The notes below the pieces were generated by a model. The model ran no database searches. It saw only the letters and a program-made list of their open reading frames with translations, and had not been told where the DNA came from. 64,000 nucleotides of DNA. Origin: Paraconexibacter antarcticus (GTDB lineage Bacteria; Actinomycetota; Thermoleophilia; Solirubrobacterales; Solirubrobacteraceae). This document shows, piece after piece, positions 4,382-35,479 of this stretch (positions within the stretch are counted from its first letter, which is position 1; each line of letters starts with the position of its first letter). The position numbers and the translations under genes were made by a program. The stretch lies in assembly GCF_024220175.1 (NCBI RefSeq), contig NZ_CP098502.1, positions 3,038,001 through 3,102,000 of the forward strand, in the 5' to 3' direction.

Positions 4382-5176
4382 TTACCTCGTGGTGGCCCGG
4401 TCGGCGTCCCGCCGCTCGAGGAACTCGTCCTTCTTCTCGTGGATCTCGGGGTCGCCCATGACCGAGTAGCTGTACAGCGCCTCGATGCGGAGCTGGTCGT
4501 CGAGCTGACGGCCGATGACCTCGAGGATGGTGTCCTTCGCGGACTCGACCGCGCTGCGCGGGTTGCGGATGATCTTGCGCGCCATGTCCTCGGCGGTCGC
4601 CATGACCTCGTCGGCGGGGACGAGGCGGTTGACGAGGTGGACCTGGAGGGCGCGCTCGGCGGTGATCGGCTCGCCGAGGAGCTCGAGCTCCATCGCGATG
4701 CCGACACCGCAGGTGTTGACGAGGCGGACGATCCCGCCGTCGCCGAAGTGCATGCCGCGGCGCATGTGGAAGAACCCGAAGTTCGCGTCGTCGGCGCAGA
4801 CGCGCATGTCGGCCGCGAGGCAGAGCTCGATGCCGCCGCCGATGATCCAGCCGTGGAGCGCGGCGATGATCGGCTTCGGCGTCCGGTGCAGGCCGCGGGT
4901 GATGCGGCCGGCGAAGCCCTTGTCGAGGACCTTGCGCCCGAGCTCGGGCCCCGCCTCGAGCCACTGGTCGACGTGGTCGTGCAGGTCGGCGCCGGCGCAG
5001 AAGTTCCTGCCGTTGCCGCTGAGGATCGCGACGCGCGCCTCGTCGTCGGCGGCGAACGCCGACCACGCCTCGAAGAGGGCGTCGTCGACCTCCGTGCTGA
5101 TCGCGTTGTGCTTGTCCGGGCGGTTGAGCGTGATGTACGCGATCTGGTCCCGGACCTCGTAGAGGACGACCGACAT
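4382..5176 (-). CDS. Enoyl-CoA hydratase/isomerase family protein
   Basis: A 264-residue crotonase-fold protein that probably hydrates or isomerises an enoyl-CoA intermediate. Visible landmarks are the N-terminal strand ITLNRPDKHNAIS, the oxyanion-hole segment NFCAGADL near residue 62, and HGWIIGGGIELCLAADMRVCADDANFGF near 105-132. The C-terminus is helical, as expected for trimer-forming crotonases. Where classical hydratases carry the first catalytic Glu, this protein reads MRRGMHFGDGG, so the chemistry may differ from plain hydration. It begins 2 bp after the P450 stop codon and ends 13 bp before the molybdopterin oxidoreductase start, inside the same operon. Confidence 0.88.
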   Translation of the reverse strand: MSVVLYEVRDQIAYITLNRPDKHNAISTEVDDALFEAWSAFAADDEARVAILSGNGRNFCAGADLHDHVDQWLEAGPELGRKVLDKGFAGRITRGLHRTPKPIIAALHGWIIGGGIELCLAADMRVCADDANFGFFHMRRGMHFGDGGIVRLVNTCGVGIAMELELLGEPITAERALQVHLVNRLVPADEVMATAEDMARKIIRNPRSAVESAKDTILEVIGRQLDDQLRIEALYSYSVMGDPEIHEKKDEFLERRDADRATTR

Positions 5177-23102: not shown

Positions 23103-25460
23103 TCAGCTCCGTCCCGCGCAGGGATGGATCGTGGACCGGCGCACGTACCGCCGCCCGCCGACGCGGGCCGTGATGACGACCCGCACCGCCCGGCGCGGCA
23201 GGCCGCGGAACGCGACGGTGAGGCGATGCCCGCGGACGGTCGCGGGGCGGCGCCGCCCGCCGACCGTGAGCCGGACCCGCGTCGCCCCTCGCGGCAGCGT
23301 GTACGTGACGCTCCGGCGGCTGCGGCACACGGTCGCGGCGGCCGCCGGGCAGGTCCCGCCGCCGGCCGGGAGCCCGGCGCGCAGCGGGAGGTCGCGCGAG
23401 GAGAACCCGACCTTCACCTGCACGCACCCGGGCGCCACCTGCCACGCGGCGGCGCGGGTGTCCCAGTACGAGAGCGCCCGCTCGTCGAGCGTGAACGTCA
23501 CGGTCCGCCGGGCGCCGGGGGCGAGCAGCACCTTCCGCAGGCCCTTCAGCTGCGACGGCGGCTCGACGACACCGGGCCGCGGCTCGGGGAGGCCGAGGTA
23601 GAGCTGCGGGACGGCGTACCCCTTGCGGCTGCCGGTGTTGCGGACGACGACCGACACCGTCGCGCCCGAGGCCGTCGGCCGGACGCGCAGGCCGCTGAGC
23701 GCGCTCGTCGTGTACGAGAGGCCGAAGCCGAACGGGTAGGCCGGCGTCAGCCCCTTCGCGTCGTACCAGCGGTAGCCGATGAGGACGCCCTCGTCGTAGT
23801 GGACGTCGAGCGCCGGCGTCCCCGGGTAGCGGTCGCGGCTCACCGCCGTCGGCAGCTGACGCTCGCTGTCGGGGAGGTGATCGGCAGGCGCCCGCCCGGG
23901 TCCACGTCACCGAAGAGGACGCGGGCGAGGGCCGGCCCGCTGCGCGAGCCGCCGAACCACGCCTCGACGAGCGCGGCGGTGTCCCCCCGCCACGGCGTGA
24001 GGTCCGGGCCGCCGGACGCCAGGACGACGATCGTCCGCGGGTTCGCCGCCGTTATGCGGCGGATGAGCGTGTCCTGGTCGCCGTGCACCCGCGGGCACTC
24101 GAGCGTGAGGCACGTCCGGTCGGCGCCCTCCGTGTAGTAGTCGCCGGCGAAGACGATCGCCACGTCGGCCTGCCGGGCGGCCGCCACCGTCGCCGCGACG
24201 CTCGACCCGTCCGCGTAGCTCACGGCCACCGCCGAGCCGGCGCGCTCCCGGATGGCGGCGAGCGGGCTGGTGAACGAGAACGGCTTGATGTTCCCCGACC
24301 CGCCGCCGGTCGTGAACGTCGTGGCGGGCGCGCCGACGACGGCGATCCGCCGGAGCTTCGCCGCGTCGAGCGGGAGGACGTGGTCCTCGTTGCGCAGCAG
24401 GGTGATCGCCTGCTCCTCGATCCGCTGCGCGGTCTGCTCGTCGGCCGTCTTGTCGATCTGGGCGTCGTCGTCGCGGTAGGCGGGGCGGTCGATGAGGCCG
24501 AAGCGGAACCACGTCGCGAGCATCGCGCGGACGTGCTCGTCGAGGGTGTCCGTGCTCGCGAGCCCGCCGGCGAGCGCGGCGTCGACGAGCAGCGGCTGGT
24601 AGGCGATGGGCGGGAACGGCTCGAAGTCGAGGCCGTTGTTCAGCGACGCGATCGTGTTGTGCGCCGCCCCGTAGTCGGCGAGGACGTAACCGTCGAAGCC
24701 CCATTCGCGGCGGAGGATCTGCTGCAGGAGGTGGTCGTTCTCGCAGGCGTACTGGCCGTTGATCCGGTTGTAGGAGCACATGACGGTGCGACCCTGGCCT
24801 CGCGGACCGCGGCCTCGAAGTGGGGGAGGTAGATCTCGCGCAGCGTCCGCTCGTCGACGATGTCGTTGCTGAGCATCCGGTTGCCCTCGAGGCCGGCGCC
24901 GACCGGCGTCTGGCTCGTCACGAGGCCGGCGCTCGCGTCCACGCCCTCCTGGTTGTTCGCCGCGAAGTGCTTCACGTCGGCGATCACCCCGGTGCGCTGG
25001 GCGGCCTCGATCCACGGGACGACCATGCGGCTCTGCAGGAACGGGTCCTCGCCGTAGTTCTCGTAGGTCCGGCCGGCGAGCGGCACGCGGGCGATGTTCA
25101 CCGCCGGCCCGAAGATGACGTCGTTGCCCTTGTCGCGCGCCTCGCTCGCGGCGACCCGGCCGTGCTCGCCCGCCAGCGCCGGGTCGAACGTCGCGGCGAG
25201 CGCGAGCGGGATCGGCAGCCCGGCGGAGCGCCCCTGCCGCGGCCCGACCGGACCGTCGCTGTAGAGCACCGTCGGCAGATCGAGCCGGGGGACCCCGAGC
25301 TGCGTCCCCGTGTGGGTGTGCTCGCCGCCGGCGATGTCGTCGCCGCCGAGCAGCGCGACCTTCTCCTCCCGCGTGAGCGCGGCGAGCAGCAGGCCGGCGC
25401 GGACCTGCGGCGTGAGCGTCGTGTCACACCACGGATGCGCGCCGCAGCGGCCCGCGGCGG
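23103..25460 (-). pseudogene. GH3 beta-glucosidase with at least two frameshifts
   Basis: A glycoside hydrolase family 3 enzyme of about 770 residues spread over three frames. The N-part has LGVPRLDLPTVLYSDGPVG, KGNDVIFGPAVNIAR, GRTYENYGEDPF and DVKHFAANNQEG. Frame shifts near 24788-24793 (one base missing), then continues VMCSYNRINGQ and WGFDGYVLADYGAAH with the nucleophile Asp of the family. A second shift near 23875 (one T missing in TTCCCC) precedes the FnIII-like domain and an 85-residue basic tail (GYRWYDAKGLTPAYPFGFGLSY). The 5' end is unresolved: the correct frame reaches RCGAHPWCDTTLTPQ near 25440 without an ATG, so a third error may hide a signal peptide. Decay or base-calling error are both possible. 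Confidence 0.78.
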
Positions 25461-27460: not shown

Positions 27461-27587
27461 GCGGCCATCATCGCGGAGCGGGGGCCGGCGGTGCCCGCCG
27501 GCTCGGACACCCGGGCGCCGCGTCATCTGCCGCGCGGCCCGCGTGCGGCCCCGGGCGGCCACGCCCGCGGCGCCGACCCCCGCGCGG

Positions 27588-27950
27588 TCAGGCGCCGGCG
27601 CGCCGGAGGGCGACCGCGACCCGCAGGTCCTGCACGGTGACGCCGGCGAGGACGCCGCAGAGCACGCGGCGGCGCGTGGTGTCGGGGCCGGGCGGCCGGC
27701 CGAGGAGGTAGGCGACGATGCCGACGTTCAGGGTCCCGCGAGCGACCATCCACGGCCACCGCCGCGGCCCGCGGACGAGACCCGGGACGAGCGCGAGGTC
27801 GGCGACGCCGATCGTCCGGAGCCCCGCGGTGTCGGTCAGGCCGACGGCCGCCCCGCATGCCTCGGGGGCCACCGCCAGCGCCCCGCCGAGCCCGGTGGTC
27901 AGCACCCCGACCCCGATCGCGGTCCGGCGGGCGGCGGCGGTGCTCGGCAT
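27588..27950 (-). CDS. Small membrane protein, 120 residues, unknown function
   Basis: Three or four hydrophobic segments (AIGVGVLTTGLGGALAVAPEACG; IGVADLALVPGLV; MVARGTLNVGIVAYLLG; VLCGVLAGVTVQDL) suggest an integral membrane protein. The family is not recognised. TAGCAT lies 6 nt before the ATG (complement 27957-27962), fitting the leaderless pattern. It is divergent from the RTX-like protein gene. Confidence 0.65.
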   Translation of the reverse strand: MPSTAAARRTAIGVGVLTTGLGGALAVAPEACGAAVGLTDTAGLRTIGVADLALVPGLVRGPRRWPWMVARGTLNVGIVAYLLGRPPGPDTTRRRVLCGVLAGVTVQDLRVAVALRRAGA

Positions 27951-28040
27951 GGCGCGATGCTACCGGCGGCAGCCGTATGTCGGCCGCGCCGCGAACTGCG
28001 CGCTTGCACGCAAATCGGCACCGCGCCGCTCTCGCACCGG

Positions 28041-28046
28041 TATGCT
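28041..28046 (+). promoter_or_regulatory. Candidate -10 (TATGCT) for the RTX-like gene
   Basis: The hexamer lies in the 195-bp divergent spacer (27951-28145). It would give a leader of about 95 nt containing a GC-rich palindrome and ending in a GGGGGA ribosome site. A matching -35 is not clear. Confidence 0.3.
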
Positions 28047-28145
28047 GACCGTGCTCCGCGCGTCCGGCCTGGCAGGACGGACGCACCCGCAGAGCACCGC
28101 GCCGGGGCCGCGCGGCCTGAATCCACACACAGGGGGACTCCTCTC

Positions 28146-29621
28146 ATGCCCGTCGTACACAACCTCTCCCGCGTCCGCGGGCTCTGCGGGCTGCTGCTCG
28201 CGCTGTCGATCCTCGCCGTCGTGCCCGCGGGTGCCTCGGCCTTCACGGCGTCACCCGTCTGGAACTGCCGGGCGAGCGCCCTCTGGACCTCCATCGGCGG
28301 CCAGAACCGCGTCGAGCCGATCGTCGCCAACGGCAACCCGAGCACCGCGAACAACAAGAGCGCGGACCGCGCGCAGTGCGCGTCGGAGGAGGCCGGCGCC
28401 GACAACCTCGCGACGCCGCTCGGCATCCCGACGAGCGTCGCCCAGGCCCAGAGCGCCAGCGCGACGACGACGATCACGCCCGAGCTCGGCAGCGCGATCG
28501 ACCAGAAGGTCACGTCGACCGCGCGCGTCGAGAAGCTCCAGCTGCCGCTCGGCGGCACCTCCGTCGTCCTCGGCGTCGGCGCCGCGAACTCCACCGCGAC
28601 CGGCTCCTGCGCCAACGGCTCGCCGGTCCTGCAGGGCACGAGCTCGATGGCCGACCTGACGCTCGGCGGCACGCCGATCTCGCTGAACGAGCTGCTCGGT
28701 GGCCTGCAGAAGGCCCTCCAGCCGCTCGGGATCATCGTCGACATCAAGTTCAACGAGGAGGTCCGCGAGAACGGCTCCTTCGTGCGCCGCGCCGCGCACA
28801 TCAAGCTCTTCGGGAGCACCGCGACGACCCCGCTCGCGGACATCGTCATCGCCGAGGCGAAGGTCACCGGCGACGCGACGACGTGTGATCCGAACAAGCA
28901 GATCCCGGGCCTCAGCGGCAAGATCTGCCCGACCGGCGCCGTCTACGACGCCATGAGCGGCTACTGCATCATCCCCGCCACCGCGTCGGGCACCGGCAAG
29001 GTCATCGTCGTCGGCCTGCCCTTCCAGGGCCCGAGCGGCGGCACCGTGCTGAGCCTCACGAAGGCGATCAAGAAGTACGGCAAGCTCATCTGCCTCCGCG
29101 GCCAGGGTTCGCAGTACGCGATCGTCGGCACCGGGAAGGCCGACCGGATCACCGGCACGAACGGCAAGGACCGGATCATCGGCCTCGGCGGCAACGACTC
29201 GCTCGACGGCGGTCGCGGCAACGACTGCATCGAGGGCGACAACGGCAACGACAAGGTCAACGGCGGCATCGGCGACGACCGGCTGTACGGCAAGGCCGGT
29301 AACGACACGATGACCGGCGACCTCGGCAAGGACTTCATGGACGGTGGAGCCGGAGCCGACAAGGTCAACGGCGGGTCGGGCAAGGACCGCCTGATCGGCG
29401 GCACGGGCGCGGACATCCTGTCCGGCGGCTTCGGCGCGGACTCGATCAGCGCGGGCACCGGCAACGACGTCGTGAACATCTCGGTCCAGGGGCCGAGCGC
29501 GACCGTCGACTGCGGCAAGGGCACGGACAAGATCCGCCTGAACCAGCGCGAGCGCAAGACGATCAAGAACTGCGAGATCCAGTACGTGCTCGCGGACAAC
29601 AAGATCGTCCGCGTGAGCTGA
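28146..29621 (+). CDS. Secreted RTX-like calcium-binding repeat protein
   Basis: A 491-residue exported protein. A Sec signal covers residues 1-33 (LCGLLLALSILAVVPAGASA). Residues 34-320 form a Ser/Thr-rich domain of unknown fold, with paired cysteines near CDPNKQIPGLSGKICPTGAVYDAMSGYC. Residues about 328-441 carry about a dozen GGxGxDxLx nonapeptides, the Ca-binding beta-roll of RTX proteins; the first few read GTGKADRITG and GLGGNDSLDG. The C-terminus has a Cys pair (VDCGKGTD, KNCEIQ). It is probably a cell-surface or released protein. The ATG follows GGGGGA. A strong hairpin ends the transcript. Confidence 0.85.
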   Translation: MPVVHNLSRVRGLCGLLLALSILAVVPAGASAFTASPVWNCRASALWTSIGGQNRVEPIVANGNPSTANNKSADRAQCASEEAGADNLATPLGIPTSVAQAQSASATTTITPELGSAIDQKVTSTARVEKLQLPLGGTSVVLGVGAANSTATGSCANGSPVLQGTSSMADLTLGGTPISLNELLGGLQKALQPLGIIVDIKFNEEVRENGSFVRRAAHIKLFGSTATTPLADIVIAEAKVTGDATTCDPNKQIPGLSGKICPTGAVYDAMSGYCIIPATASGTGKVIVVGLPFQGPSGGTVLSLTKAIKKYGKLICLRGQGSQYAIVGTGKADRITGTNGKDRIIGLGGNDSLDGGRGNDCIEGDNGNDKVNGGIGDDRLYGKAGNDTMTGDLGKDFMDGGAGADKVNGGSGKDRLIGGTGADILSGGFGADSISAGTGNDVVNISVQGPSATVDCGKGTDKIRLNQRERKTIKNCEIQYVLADNKIVRVS

Positions 29622-31108: not shown

Positions 31109-31993
31109 ATGCGCGACGAAGCTACGCCCCGGGTCAAGACCGGCCTCGCCGAGATGCTGAAGGGCGGCGTCATCATGGACGTCGTCGACGCCGATCAGGC
31201 GCGGATCGCGGAGGAGGCCGGCGCGGTCGCCGTCATGGCGCTCGAGCGCGTCCCGTCCGACATCCGCCGCGACGGCGGGGTCGCGCGCATGAGCGACCCG
31301 GCGATGATCAAGGGCATCCAGGCCGCCGTGTCGATCCCGGTCATGGCGAAGGCCCGCATCGGCCACTTCGCCGAGGCGCAGGTCCTGCAGGCCCTCGAGG
31401 TCGACTACATCGACGAGTCGGAGGTCCTCACGCCCGCCGACGAGGCGAACCACATCGACAAGTGGGCGTTCGAGATCCCCTTCGTCTGCGGCGCGACGAA
31501 CCTCGGCGAGGCGCTGCGGCGCATCGGCGAGGGCGCGGCGCTCATCCGCTCCAAGGGCGAGGCCGGCACCGGCGACATCGTCGAGGCCGTCCGCCACATG
31601 CGCTCGATCAACGCCGACATCCGCTCGCTCGCCGGCATGGACGGCGCCGAGCTCGCGACCGCCGCGAAGCTCCACCAGGCGCCGCTCGAGCTCGTCCGCC
31701 TCACCGCCCAGCTCGGCGCGCTGCCCGTCCCGCTCTTCTCCGCCGGCGGCATCGCGACCCCGGCCGACGCCGCGCTCATGATGCAGCTCGGCGCCCAGAC
31801 CGTGTTCGTCGGCTCGGGCATCTTCAAGAGCGACGACCCCGTGGCCCGGGCCCGCGCCGTTGTCGAGGCCACGACCCACTTCCAGGACCCGCACCGCGTC
31901 GCCGCGGCGAGCGAGGGCCTCGGCGCCGCGATGCAGTCGCTCGAGGCGCGCAAGCTCGAGTCCGGCGCCACGTTCGCCGGCCGCGGCTGGTAG
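31109..31993 (+). CDS. pdxS: Pyridoxal 5'-phosphate synthase subunit PdxS
   Basis: A 294-residue TIM-barrel lyase that builds PLP from ribose 5-phosphate, glyceraldehyde 3-phosphate and ammonia delivered by PdxT. Lys81 (VMAKARIGH) forms the sugar imine and Lys149 ([10 protein letters not shown]) the later intermediate. [27 protein letters not shown] and the phosphate loop [13 protein letters not shown] are canonical. An in-frame ATG 57 bp upstream is rejected because the candidate -10 lies between the two. The stop codon overlaps the pdxT GTG by one base (TAGTG). Confidence 0.97.
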
Positions 31994-32589
31994 TGGGGGA
32001 CGCGTCCGCACCGGACGGCGGCCCGCTCGTCGGCGTCCTCGCCCTGCAGGGCGACTACGGCGCGCACGCGCGCATGCTCACCGCGCTCGGCGCGCGCGTC
32101 CGCGAGGTGCGCGTGCCGGCCGACCTCGACGGGCTCGAGGGGCTTGTCATCCCCGGTGGCGAGTCGACGACGATGACGCTCGGCGTCGCCCGCGAGGGGC
32201 TCGCCGAGCCGCTGCAGGCCTTCGCGGCCGCGGGTGCCCCGCTGCTCGGCACCTGCGCCGGGCTCATCATGCTCGACCGCACGCACCTCGGGATCCTCGA
32301 CGTCACGGCCGAGCGCAACGCCTTCGGCCGCCAGATCCGGAGCTTCGAGGAGGATCTGCAGCTCGACGGGATCACCGGCGCGGGGGCGCCCATGCGCGCG
32401 GTCTTCATCCGCGCGCCGTGGGTGGCCGAGCACGGGCCCGACGTCGAGGTCCTGGCCGCCGTCGACGGGCACATCGTCGCCGTCCGGCAGGGCGAAGTCC
32501 TCGCGGTGTCGTTCCACCCCGAGATCACCGGGGACGACCGGCTGCACGCCGCGTTCCTGGCCCGCGTCCGGGCCCGCCGGGGCGCGTAG
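31993..32589 (+). CDS. pdxT: PLP synthase glutaminase subunit PdxT
   Basis: A 198-residue class I glutaminase that hydrolyses glutamine and channels ammonia to PdxS. Nucleophile Cys88 is in LLGTCAGLIML and the His-Glu pair is in SFHPEITGD near the C-terminus. The IPGGESTTM oxyanion strand is intact. The GTG start shares its first base with the pdxS stop, so the two are translationally coupled. The N-terminus has about 12 residues before the family's usual GVLALQGD. Confidence 0.96.
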   Translation: MGDASAPDGGPLVGVLALQGDYGAHARMLTALGARVREVRVPADLDGLEGLVIPGGESTTMTLGVAREGLAEPLQAFAAAGAPLLGTCAGLIMLDRTHLGILDVTAERNAFGRQIRSFEEDLQLDGITGAGAPMRAVFIRAPWVAEHGPDVEVLAAVDGHIVAVRQGEVLAVSFHPEITGDDRLHAAFLARVRARRGA

Positions 32590-32609: not shown

Positions 32610-34226
32610 CTACGGCGTGGCGGGCTGGTAGACCGACTCGCCGCCGCCGGTGCTCGTCGTCGAGGCGGGCGGGGTGGAGGCGTCGCCGGCCGGGAGCGCG
32701 GCCGCCGGCTGCGTCGGGGTGACGCTCTCGACCTTCGCCTTGCGCGGGGTCGGGGCGGTGGTCGCGCGGGCGGGGGCGGCCGCACCGGCGGGCCGCGCCG
32801 TGGGCACGGGCGTCGTGGCGCCGGCCCGGACCGGCGTGGGGACGGTGGGCGTGGCGGCGGTGGCCGTGGGGGTGGTGGCCGTCGCGGGGGGCGCGGGACC
32901 GACGGCTCGCTTCGGAGCGCGCCGGGTGGGGCGACGGCGCGCGGGTGAGGGAGCGGCGGCCACCGCCGCGGTGCTCGTCGTCAACCCCGGCGCAGTGACG
33001 GCGGCGGCGGGGCCGACGATGACCGCGGGCGTGGGGTCGCCGCCGCCGAAGACGCCCGCGATGGCGAGCATGACGAGCACGGCGACGATGACCGCGATGG
33101 CGGGGAGCAGGAGCCGGTAGACGGGGCCGGGGTCGAGCAGCTCGGCGTCCTCGTCCGTCGCGACCGCGGTCTCGCTGTGGCGCGGGAGCGAGCGGCCGCC
33201 GCCGGCGGGCAGTCGGGGCCGCGGGAGACGCGGGGACGGCAGACGGCGGCGCGTGCGGCCGGTCGCGGCGAAGGCGGGGACGATGTCGGGGTCGGGCTCG
33301 GTGAGGTGGTCGGGCTCGCCGGCCGGGACGGCGCCGGCATCGAGGCCGTGGGGCAGGGCGACGCCGACCGCGGCGACGGGGAGCGGGAGCTCCTCGACCG
33401 GCTCGGGCGTGTCCAGGATGAACGGGGCCGGCTCCTCCTCGGGCGCGGCGTGCTCCGCGGGCTCGTCCGGGGCCAGGACCGCGTGCACGGCGGTGGGCTG
33501 CTCCTCGGGAGCGGGCGCGGGTTCCGGGTCCGGGGCCAGCTCCGGCGCGGGCGCCTCGGCGATCGGCTGCGGCTCCGCGACGGGCTCCGGCTCGACGACG
33601 GGGGTGGGCGCGGGGACGGGGGTGAGCTCGACGGCGAGCGGCGGCTCGGGTGCCTCGGCGATCGGCACGCCGTCCGCGAGCGGGGCGGCGCCCTGCATGG
33701 CGGAGACCGCGAGCGCGGTCGTCGTCACGTCGAGCGGGCGGTCGGGCGGGCTGCGGTAGCCGCGCTCGGCCCGGCGGAACGCGGCCTCGACCTCACGACA
33801 CCCCGGCGAGCGCTCGAGCAGGCGGTGCAGGCGCTCGAGGTCGTCCTCGCCGAGCATCGAGTCGGCCCGCGCCGCGAGCAGCGACGGCACCGCGGCATAC
33901 GTCTCCGGGCTCGCCCCGCGACCGAGGACGCGGAGGACGCCACGGCCGTCGCTCGGGGGCCGGGCCATCGACGCGGCCGCGTGGCGGGTCGCGCCGAGCA
34001 GGTAGGACTCGGGGTCGACGCCCGACGTGTCACCCACCGCCACGACGAGGGCGCGGAAGCGCGCGAACGCCTCGGCCAGCGCCGGCGGGACGTCCTCCGG
34101 GGCGCAGACGGCCTCGCAGAACGCGAGCACGGCGGGGCCGCGGCGCGCGACGAGCGCCGTGAGCACGGCCGGATCGCCGTCGCGCACACCCTGAGGCGTG
34201 ACGGCGGCCTGCGGAAGGTCGTCCAT
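32610..34226 (-). CDS. Membrane-anchored protein with sigma-factor-like cytoplasmic domain
   Basis: A 538-residue protein of unusual layout. Residues about 12-85 resemble ECF sigma region 2 (VRDGDPAVLTALVARRGPAVLAFCEAVC... ALAEAFARFRALV ... DPESYLLGATRHAAA). A second helical block near 125-165 reads MLGEDDLERLHRLLERSPGCREVEAAFRRAERGYR. A Pro/Glu/Ala-rich linker of about 200 residues follows, then one transmembrane helix (YRLLLPAIAVIVAVLVMLAIAGVF, about 367-392), then a Thr/Pro/Ala-rich tail of about 145 residues outside the membrane. It could be an inactive sigma or anti-sigma-type signal protein. ATG at 34226 lies 14 bp after the upstream glycosyltransferase stop, so the two may be co-transcribed. 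Confidence 0.7.
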   Translation of the reverse strand: MDDLPQAAVTPQGVRDGDPAVLTALVARRGPAVLAFCEAVCAPEDVPPALAEAFARFRALVVAVGDTSGVDPESYLLGATRHAAASMARPPSDGRGVLRVLGRGASPETYAAVPSLLAARADSMLGEDDLERLHRLLERSPGCREVEAAFRRAERGYRSPPDRPLDVTTTALAVSAMQGAAPLADGVPIAEAPEPPLAVELTPVPAPTPVVEPEPVAEPQPIAEAPAPELAPDPEPAPAPEEQPTAVHAVLAPDEPAEHAAPEEEPAPFILDTPEPVEELPLPVAAVGVALPHGLDAGAVPAGEPDHLTEPDPDIVPAFAATGRTRRRLPSPRLPRPRLPAGGGRSLPRHSETAVATDEDAELLDPGPVYRLLLPAIAVIVAVLVMLAIAGVFGGGDPTPAVIVGPAAAVTAPGLTTSTAAVAAAPSPARRRPTRRAPKRAVGPAPPATATTPTATAATPTVPTPVRAGATTPVPTARPAGAAAPARATTAPTPRKAKVESVTPTQPAAALPAGDASTPPASTTSTGGGESVYQPATP

Positions 34227-34240
34227 CGAAGGGATCAAAT

Positions 34241-35479
34241 CTAGTCGGTCGGGCGGGCGGACGCATGACCGCGCGCCGTCTCCGGGAGCTCCGCGAGCAG
34301 CGCGCTCAGCCGCGCCGTCTCGGTGCGGAGGTCCGCGCGCTCGATGACGCGGGCGCGCCCGGCCCGTCCGAGCGCCGCCCGCTCCGCCGGGCCGAGCGCG
34401 AGGACCTGCGCGAGTCCGGCCGCGAGCGCCGACGCGTCACCGGTCGCGACGACGACCCCGGTGCCGGGGACGACGACCTCCGGCAGCCCGACCGCGTCGG
34501 AGACGACGACGGGGACCTCCATCGCCATCGCCTCCTTGACGACGACCGGCATCGAGTCGCGGTCCCCGTCGGCGGCGACGACGCACGGCATGGCGAGGAC
34601 GTCGGCGGCCTCGAGCTCGCCCCGGACGGCGTCCTCCGCGAGGGCTCCGGTGAAGCGCACGCGCCGCTCGACGCCCAGTGCGGCCGCCTGCGCGCGGAGT
34701 GCGTCCAGGAGCGGTCCCGCCCCGACGAGGACGAGGTCCGCACGGGCGAGCCGCGGGTCCGCGAGAGCGTCGAGCAGCAACGCGAAGCCCTTCTTCTCGA
34801 CGAGGCGGCCGACGGCGAGGATGCGCCGGCCGCCCGGGGCGGGCGCCGTTCGGCGGAACCGCTCGGGGTCCACGCCCATGACGATCTCGTGCACGCGGCC
34901 GGCGTCGCCCGGACCCGCGCGCCGGCGCAGCTCCTGCACCGTGTACTCGCAGCCCGACGTGACGAGGGCGGCGGCGCTGAGCTTCTCGGGAAGGTTCGCG
35001 GGGGCGAGGTAGATGTCGTAGGCGTGGGCGGTGAGGGACCACGGGCGGCCGAGGACACGGCTCGCGCGGAGGGCCCGCAGCGCGGGCCCGGTCGCGAAGT
35101 GCGCGTGGACGAGGGCGCCAGATGCCTCGAGCCGGCGGATCGCCGGGGCGAGGGTCCGCAGCGGCGGCACCGGCTCCTCCCGGCGCCAGCGGCGCCGCGC
35201 GGCGAGGTCCTGCAGGCAGCGCCACGGATGGCGCGCGGCGACCGCCGCCATCGCGCGCAGCCGCTCGCCCGTGCCCTCTCGCCAGAGGTGGCTCACCGGC
35301 AGGCCGTGGTCGCCCGGGCCGTCACCGGGCGCCCCGGCGCCGATCCGCACCGGATGGCCGAGCCCGGCCAGGGCGCGGGCCTCCGCGAGGACGAACGTCT
35401 CCGAGACCGACGGGAAGGTGTCGCACCACAGCTCCAGCGGGCGGCGGGGCCGTGAGGCGGGGGCGGGGGGATGCGACAT
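34241..35479 (-). CDS. Glycosyltransferase family 4 protein
   Basis: A 412-residue GT-B retaining glycosyltransferase. The acceptor half begins LELWCDTFPSVSETFVLAEARALAGLGH, typical of exopolysaccharide GT4 enzymes. The donor half has ILAVGRLVEKKGFALLLDAL and VVVKEAMAMEVPVVVSDAVGLPEVV, the EX7E-like donor site. ATG at 35479 is only 25 bp from the start of the divergent GT2 gene. It is the left end of the glycan locus; donor and acceptor are not predictable. Confidence 0.9.
   Translation of the reverse strand: MSHPPAPASRPRRPLELWCDTFPSVSETFVLAEARALAGLGHPVRIGAGAPGDGPGDHGLPVSHLWREGTGERLRAMAAVAARHPWRCLQDLAARRRWRREEPVPPLRTLAPAIRRLEASGALVHAHFATGPALRALRASRVLGRPWSLTAHAYDIYLAPANLPEKLSAAALVTSGCEYTVQELRRRAGPGDAGRVHEIVMGVDPERFRRTAPAPGGRRILAVGRLVEKKGFALLLDALADPRLARADLVLVGAGPLLDALRAQAAALGVERRVRFTGALAEDAVRGELEAADVLAMPCVVAADGDRDSMPVVVKEAMAMEVPVVVSDAVGLPEVVVPGTGVVVATGDASALAAGLAQVLALGPAERAALGRAGRARVIERADLRTETARLSALLAELPETARGHASARPTD

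What the first reader, a model, noticed from the sequence alone, without database searches (positions are those of the whole stretch)
32610..34226. Sigma-region-2-like domain on a membrane-anchored protein
The N-terminal domain looks like ECF sigma region 2 plus a helical block, but no region 4 is seen. It is followed by a 200-residue acidic/proline linker, one transmembrane helix and a 145-residue Thr/Pro-rich outer tail. A sigma-like module held at the membrane, next to a glycan locus, suggests a surface-stress sensor working by sigma mimicry or release.
Basis: partly seen in the sequence, partly recalled or inferred. Interest (0 to 1): 0.65.

Follow-up and report, generated by a model that had tools for sequence, protein, structure and literature searches.

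The report
Membrane-bound pseudo-sigma/anti-sigma fusion protein
A bacterium of the order Solirubrobacterales carries a conserved membrane protein built from half of a gene-switching sigma factor joined to the inhibitor domain that normally restrains one; the sigma half has lost the parts needed to work with RNA polymerase, so it probably regulates other proteins and does not switch on genes itself.

Summary
On the minus strand (34226..32610) lies a 538-aa protein: sigma-2-like domain, helical block, linker, one membrane helix and a Thr/Pro/Ala-rich tail, with no sigma-4. Its zinc motif (C..HxxxCxxC) is intact in 23 of 26 aligned sequences, but three of four ligands are lost here. Profile-profile comparison ties the N-domain to ECF sigma-2 (P 95%, E 1.8e-8) and the block to the ASDs of ECF-ASD fusions in the same genome (P 93%, E 4.6e-7).

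All 26 sequences have lost the sigma-2 residues for core RNA polymerase (Q 0/26 against 19/20 in real ECFs) and for promoter binding or melting (W 0/26 against 20/20; N 0/26 against 18/20). Both domains remain under purifying selection. Release of a working sigma factor is therefore unlikely. Best reading: an ECF52/53-type sigma-ASD-membrane fusion that lost sigma-4 and became a pseudo-sigma/anti-sigma protein, working by protein contacts at the membrane. Full-length members were found only in Thermoleophilia, mostly beside pdxS-pdxT near glycosyltransferase genes. Some distant relatives carry sortase or LytR_C domains outside. Function is untested. New variant of a known kind.

The parts
32610..34226 (-). 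whole gene, 538 aa: pseudo-sigma-2 / anti-sigma domain / linker / membrane helix / outer tail
   Evidence: homologues; purifying selection
33951..34199 (-). sigma-2-like domain (residues 10-92); the Q, W and N typical of ECF regions 2.2-2.4 are all replaced
33681..33917 (-). anti-sigma domain, class I / zf-HC2 type, four helices (residues 104-182); zinc-ligand positions now Y110, L136, S140, C143
   Evidence: relatives match PF13490 zf-HC2, RsiW/ChrR by profile, RsiW and MucA by fold; ligand table
33114..33680 (-). acidic/proline linker, probably disordered (residues 183-371), fast evolving
   Evidence: composition, dN/dS; disorder inferred from composition
33042..33113 (-). single transmembrane helix LLLPAIAVIVAVLVMLAIAGVFGG (residues 372-395); a Pro near its start and a GVFGG-like end recur in relatives
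32613..33041 (-). extracytoplasmic Thr/Pro/Ala-rich tail (residues 396-538); nearly absent in two relatives, replaced by sortase+PG-binding or LytR_C domains in distant ones
34241..35479 (-). glycosyltransferase (group 1) directly upstream on the same strand; 14 bases between its stop and the ATG, so probably co-transcribed (inferred)
31109..32589 (+). pdxS and pdxT (PLP synthase), convergent; the conserved syntenic landmark of the family

Best explanation
It is a membrane-anchored pseudo-sigma/anti-sigma fusion. An ancestor of the ECF52/53 kind (sigma-2, sigma-4, zinc anti-sigma domain, membrane helix, Pro-rich outer part), a layout still found many times in this genome, lost sigma-4. Its remaining sigma-2 lost the residues that hold RNA polymerase and promoter DNA. 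What is left is a cytoplasmic sigma-2 plus ASD unit tethered to the membrane. Proposed mechanism (inferred): ASD helix 4 stays docked on the pseudo-sigma-2 in cis, as in known ECF/ASD complexes, while the ASD face that normally grips sigma-4 (helices 1-3) is free. The protein then works through protein-protein contacts at the membrane, most plausibly as a trans-acting anti-sigma-type or sigma-mimic regulator of other ECF/anti-sigma pairs, and not as a sigma factor. Shown: domain homologies, missing sigma-4, loss of contact residues, purifying selection, membrane helix, lineage restriction. Inferred: the loss-of-sigma-4 history, the cis docking, and any trans partner. The confidence is for the whole statement; for identity alone (degenerate sigma-2 plus ASD, not a working sigma) I would say about 0.9.
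For: Sigma-2 homology: hhalign P 95.4%, E 1.8e-8, shuffled controls 0.1%; an ECF HMM finds family members before any other neighbourhood gene; 13 best structural matches all sigma factors, Z 5.5-8.6. ASD homology: zf-HC2 in relatives; RsiW and ChrR by profile; hhalign P 92.6% with the ASDs of same-genome ECF fusions, cross-domain controls 0.1-0.2%; four ASD helices predicted. Lost contact residues: Q 0/26 vs 19/20, W 0/26 vs 20/20, N 0/26 vs 18/20. Ancestral layout present: nine ECF genes in this genome carry HxxxCxxC after sigma-4 and long tails with a candidate membrane helix; the window's three best ECF matches include two of the fused type, L029 and L089. Maintained: dN/dS 0.17-0.18 in both domains. 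Literature: ASD helix 4 binds sigma-2 regions 2.1/2.2 and helices 1-3 bind sigma-4 (PMC7406223); PhyR is a precedent for a sigma-like domain with degenerate RNAP and promoter regions that works only by binding an anti-sigma (PMC8103513).
Against: No partner is identified: no other ECF or sigma-4 gene was found near the family in the fetched loci. ASD helix 4 is the least conserved helix, which fits specificity but also relaxation. An envelope-scaffold role explains the sortase and LytR_C fusions at least as well. The membrane helix in the same-genome ECF fusions is only weakly predicted.
Confidence: 0.55

Rival explanations
1. Envelope scaffold: the sigma-2/ASD unit has no remaining transcriptional role and serves as a cytoplasmic docking or anchoring domain that positions a membrane or cell-wall protein near glycan or wall machinery.
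For: Distant relatives carry real wall domains outside: sortase plus peptidoglycan-binding (L025) and LytR_C (L022, L027). Glycosyltransferase genes lie upstream in many loci. No sigma partner gene nearby.
Against: Close relatives have only low-complexity tails or none (L007, L008); nothing in the cytoplasmic domains points to a glycan-enzyme partner.
Confidence: 0.27
2. Membrane-held working sigma factor: proteolysis releases the N-domain, which joins RNA polymerase, perhaps with a separate sigma-4 protein as in SigO-RsoA.
For: The layout resembles ECF52 SCO4117, for which proteolytic release is proposed (PMC5826349, PMC8999054). SigO-RsoA shows that sigma-2 and sigma-4 can be separate proteins (PMC8103513).
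Against: Core-binding and promoter residues absent in 26/26 sequences. No sigma-4 in the protein or convincingly in the neighbourhoods.
Confidence: 0.08
3. Decaying relic: a former ECF-ASD fusion on its way to being lost.
For: Features are being lost, including zinc ligands (CHCC, CHHC and YLSC all occur within one genus). Homologues were not found in every genome of the genus, though those genomes are incomplete.
Against: dN/dS about 0.17-0.18 in both domains between two proteins that have both lost the ligands; conserved synteny across genera; matches in 16 of 51 sampled genera of the order.
Confidence: 0.08

Closest known systems
ECF52 sigma factors (SCO4117 of Streptomyces coelicolor) and ECF48/ECF53
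   Same: sigma-2-type N-domain, anti-sigma domain of zinc-finger type, membrane helix and Pro-rich outer region in one chain; actinobacterial (PMC5826349, PMC8999054)
   Different: no sigma-4, RNA polymerase and promoter residues lost, zinc ligands lost here, no carbohydrate-binding domain
Class I anti-sigma factors (RsiW, ChrR, RskA, RseA)
   Same: four-helix ASD; membrane-anchored like RsiW; zinc motif in most relatives
   Different: a pseudo-sigma-2 is fused in front of the ASD, and no cognate sigma gene is adjacent
PhyR (sigma mimic of the alphaproteobacterial general stress response)
   Same: sigma-like domain with degenerate RNA polymerase and promoter regions (PMC8103513)
   Different: [quoted passage not shown] here sigma-2 only, its own ASD and a membrane helix
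[quoted passage not shown]
   Same: a sigma-2 without sigma-4 in one protein (PMC8103513)
   Different: RsoA is a working subunit with a sigma-4 partner; here contact residues are lost and no partner is seen nearby

Membership tests
ECF (group IV) sigma factor | sigma-2 domain | tested here: met
ECF (group IV) sigma factor | sigma-4 domain | tested here: not met
   no Pfam match; sigma-4 HMM with filters off finds nothing
ECF (group IV) sigma factor | region 2.2 core-binding and region 2.3/2.4 promoter residues | tested here: not met
   Q, W and N absent in 26/26 sequences
ECF (group IV) sigma factor | binds core RNA polymerase and directs transcription | not testable with these tools
   needs biochemistry
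ECF52/ECF53 fusion | working sigma-2 plus sigma-4 in front of the ASD | tested here: not met
ECF52/ECF53 fusion | zinc-finger ASD | tested here: inconclusive
   ASD present; zinc motif intact in 23/26 sequences but lost in the window protein
ECF52/ECF53 fusion | membrane helix and Pro-rich outer extension | tested here: met
ECF52/ECF53 fusion | carbohydrate-binding module (ECF52) | tested here: not met
   no Pfam match in the window protein
Class I anti-sigma factor | four-helix anti-sigma domain | tested here: met
Class I anti-sigma factor | cognate ECF sigma gene close by (usual, not universal) | tested here: not met
   none found in the window or the 20 fetched loci of 12-19 kb
Class I anti-sigma factor | binds and inhibits an ECF sigma | not testable with these tools
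   needs pulldown or two-hybrid
PhyR-type sigma mimic | degenerate sigma domain unable to contact RNAP and promoter | tested here: met
   by residue loss only
PhyR-type sigma mimic | receiver domain | tested here: not met
   no Pfam match
SigO-RsoA type split sigma | separate sigma-4 partner protein | tested here: inconclusive
   no convincing sigma-4 protein in the neighbourhoods; the rest of the genome was not searched for stand-alone sigma-4

The most novel reading that the evidence does not exclude
A new class of membrane regulator: an anti-sigma factor that carries its own decoy sigma-2 in cis, leaving its sigma-4-binding face free to capture ECF sigma factors (or to act as a sigma mimic on another anti-sigma) in trans, with varied outer domains coupling this to the cell wall.
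Probability: 0.25. Interest if true: 0.7.

Novelty: new variant of a known kind. Interest (0 to 1): 0.5.

Why it matters
Fused ECF-ASD sigma factors are known but little studied. This family appears to show the next evolutionary step: the sigma part turned into a pseudo-domain yet kept under selection together with its inhibitor across a bacterial family. If it regulates other sigma factors, it would be a sigma-mimicry system evolved independently of PhyR, built from a sigma/anti-sigma pair in one chain. It also offers a natural test of which sigma-2 residues are needed only for RNA polymerase and which for the anti-sigma contact.

Tried and rejected
Pfam and NCBIfam on the window protein itself gave nothing useful; the identity came only through relatives. 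The single genome-contig scan gave one relative, 80% identical, in a Solirubrobacterales MAG; L031 and L002 give the same protein and appear to be the same contig. Foldseek E-values of the model were not significant (best 0.79); the VIA re-ranking was informative, but Z about 8 alone is common for helical bundles, so I lean on profile comparison and residue tests. L028 (my ORF pick there was a thioredoxin-like frame), the truncated L024 and the full ECF L029 were left out of the family alignment. A promoter/terminator scan around the gene found nothing. Literature searches found no description of this architecture in Thermoleophilia, but most subscription papers are not held. Considered and rejected: a sigma-4 hidden elsewhere in the protein; a direct role in PLP synthesis or proline catabolism (neighbourhood only). 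PADLOC and PHROGs were not searched. The second structure job was not used.

Full report
What is there. The gene runs on the minus strand from 34226 to 32610 and encodes 538 residues. Nothing in Pfam or NCBIfam recognises it. The genome (one contig, 5.14 Mb) has one clear copy. Homologues were found in 33 of 201 genomes of the order at E <= 0.001, the weakest of which are doubtful. With a profile of 26 N-domains (A1), strong matches in 399 genomes of the class lie in the window's own family and in a few genomes of a second family of the order. In 396 genomes of the phylum no match covering the whole profile lies outside the window's own family (that sample did not include the second-family members). 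The only named relative is a Solirubrobacterales MAG.

The N-domain is sigma-2. Profile comparison of the family (residues 1-92) with sigma-2 of ECF factors from the same genome gives P 95.4%, E 1.8e-8 over 78 columns, against P 0.1% for five column-shuffled controls. An HMM of ECF sigma-2 run over all predicted genes in 21 loci has family members as its 17 best hits. AlphaFold2 gives pLDDT 90.5 and pTM 0.87, and the 13 best structural matches are sigma factors (sigma-E, CnrH, BldN, AlgU, SigW and others; Z 5.5-8.6). Such Z values alone would be weak for a helical bundle; together with the sequence evidence they are convincing.

The 'helical block' is an anti-sigma domain. Seven proteins of the family scanned against Pfam all give zf-HC2 as a match, at E 8.6e-6 to 0.0033 for six and 0.84 for one; two pass Pfam's cut-off. 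The profile finds the anti-sigma factors RsiW, a tuberculosis membrane protein (3hug) and ChrR first among solved structures, at E 0.006-0.05, and the fold finds RsiW and MucA. The block also matches the anti-sigma domains of ECF fusions in the same genome (P 92.6%, E 4.6e-7, over 21 columns around the zinc motif), while cross-domain controls give 0.1-0.2%. Helices at 113-121, 127-139, 141-158 and 167-179 make up the four-helix pattern that defines a class I ASD (PMC7406223). The zinc-ligand positions read C-H-C-C in 23 of 26 sequences, C-H-H-C in one of the same genus, and Y-L-S-C in the window protein and its nearest relative. Zinc-free ASDs are common and still bind sigma factors, so this loss does not by itself mean loss of function.

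Why it is not a working sigma factor. There is no sigma-4. Against 20 ECF sequences, the region 2.2 glutamine is kept in 19/20 ECFs and 0/26 family sequences, the tryptophan in 20/20 and 0/26, and the asparagine in 18/20 and 0/26, while likely buried positions (F54, L76) are kept in 24 and 26 of 26. That region 2.2 meets the beta' coiled-coil and regions 2.3-2.4 meet the -10 element is established (PMC4598750); assigning these particular residues to those roles rests on my knowledge of ECF factors. The 26 sequences share ancestry, so the counts are not independent events. Both domains are nonetheless constrained: dN/dS against L031 is 0.18 and 0.17, against 0.54 in the linker and 0.61 in the tail. 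Conservation is highest in ASD helix 1 and lowest, among the helices, in ASD helix 4.

Origin. Nine ECF genes of this genome have HxxxCxxC after sigma-4 and long C-terminal extensions with a candidate, weakly predicted, membrane helix (three of them are near-identical copies). This matches the published ECF48/52/53 layout (PMC8999054, PMC5826349). The window's three best ECF matches include two fusions of this type (L029 from a relative, L089). The simplest history, not proven by a tree, is loss of sigma-4 from such a fusion followed by decay of the RNA polymerase contacts.

Outside part. The single membrane helix is conserved; the tail is not. L007 and L008 have five and zero residues after it. 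Distant relatives carry a sortase with a peptidoglycan-binding domain (L025 by Pfam; L026 alike by sequence) or LytR_C (L022, L027).

Locus. In 13 of the 19 loci where the gene was called (window included), pdxT lies within six genes downstream, always on the opposite strand. Glycosyltransferases are frequent upstream, and proline dehydrogenase and P5C dehydrogenase follow on the same strand in six loci (names of the last two enzymes are read from sequence, not from a family search; the gene caller was home-made). In the window a glycosyltransferase gene ends 14 bases before the ATG. No other ECF or convincing sigma-4 gene is near.

Mechanism. In solved complexes, ASD helices 1-3 bind sigma-4 and helix 4 binds sigma-2 over the surface used for RNA polymerase. 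In this protein sigma-2 and ASD are joined with sigma-4 missing, so helix 4 could dock in cis and leave the other face free. I infer a membrane-held regulator acting by protein contacts, comparable in logic to PhyR, whose degenerate sigma-like domain titrates an anti-sigma. This trans-acting step is untested; an envelope scaffold is the main rival.

Noticed in passing
L025:1429 onward and L026 (distant family members): Sortase plus peptidoglycan-binding domain fused to a cytoplasmic pseudo-sigma-2/zinc anti-sigma module: an unusual combination of a wall enzyme with a transcription-type domain.
   Followed up: partly
L022 and L027: LytR_C domain outside, same pseudo-sigma-2/ASD module inside.
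   Followed up: partly
L070, minus strand, reverse-strand frame starting near 4770: A second related open frame (632 residues) two genes away from the family member, in which the sigma-2 part is almost gone and the ASD, acidic linker and a hydrophobic helix remain; possibly a further step of decay.
   Followed up: no
own genome, L090, L093, L094: Three nearly identical ECF-ASD fusion genes (about 520 aa) at distant sites, suggesting recent duplication or a mobile copy.
   Followed up: no
window 27543-29621 (+): Protein whose C-terminal part carries RTX-like glycine/aspartate-rich repeats (GGxGxD type).
   Followed up: no
window 23103-24781 (-): A gene that looks like a glycoside hydrolase family 3 member appears split into two overlapping frames; read from sequence only.
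   Followed up: no
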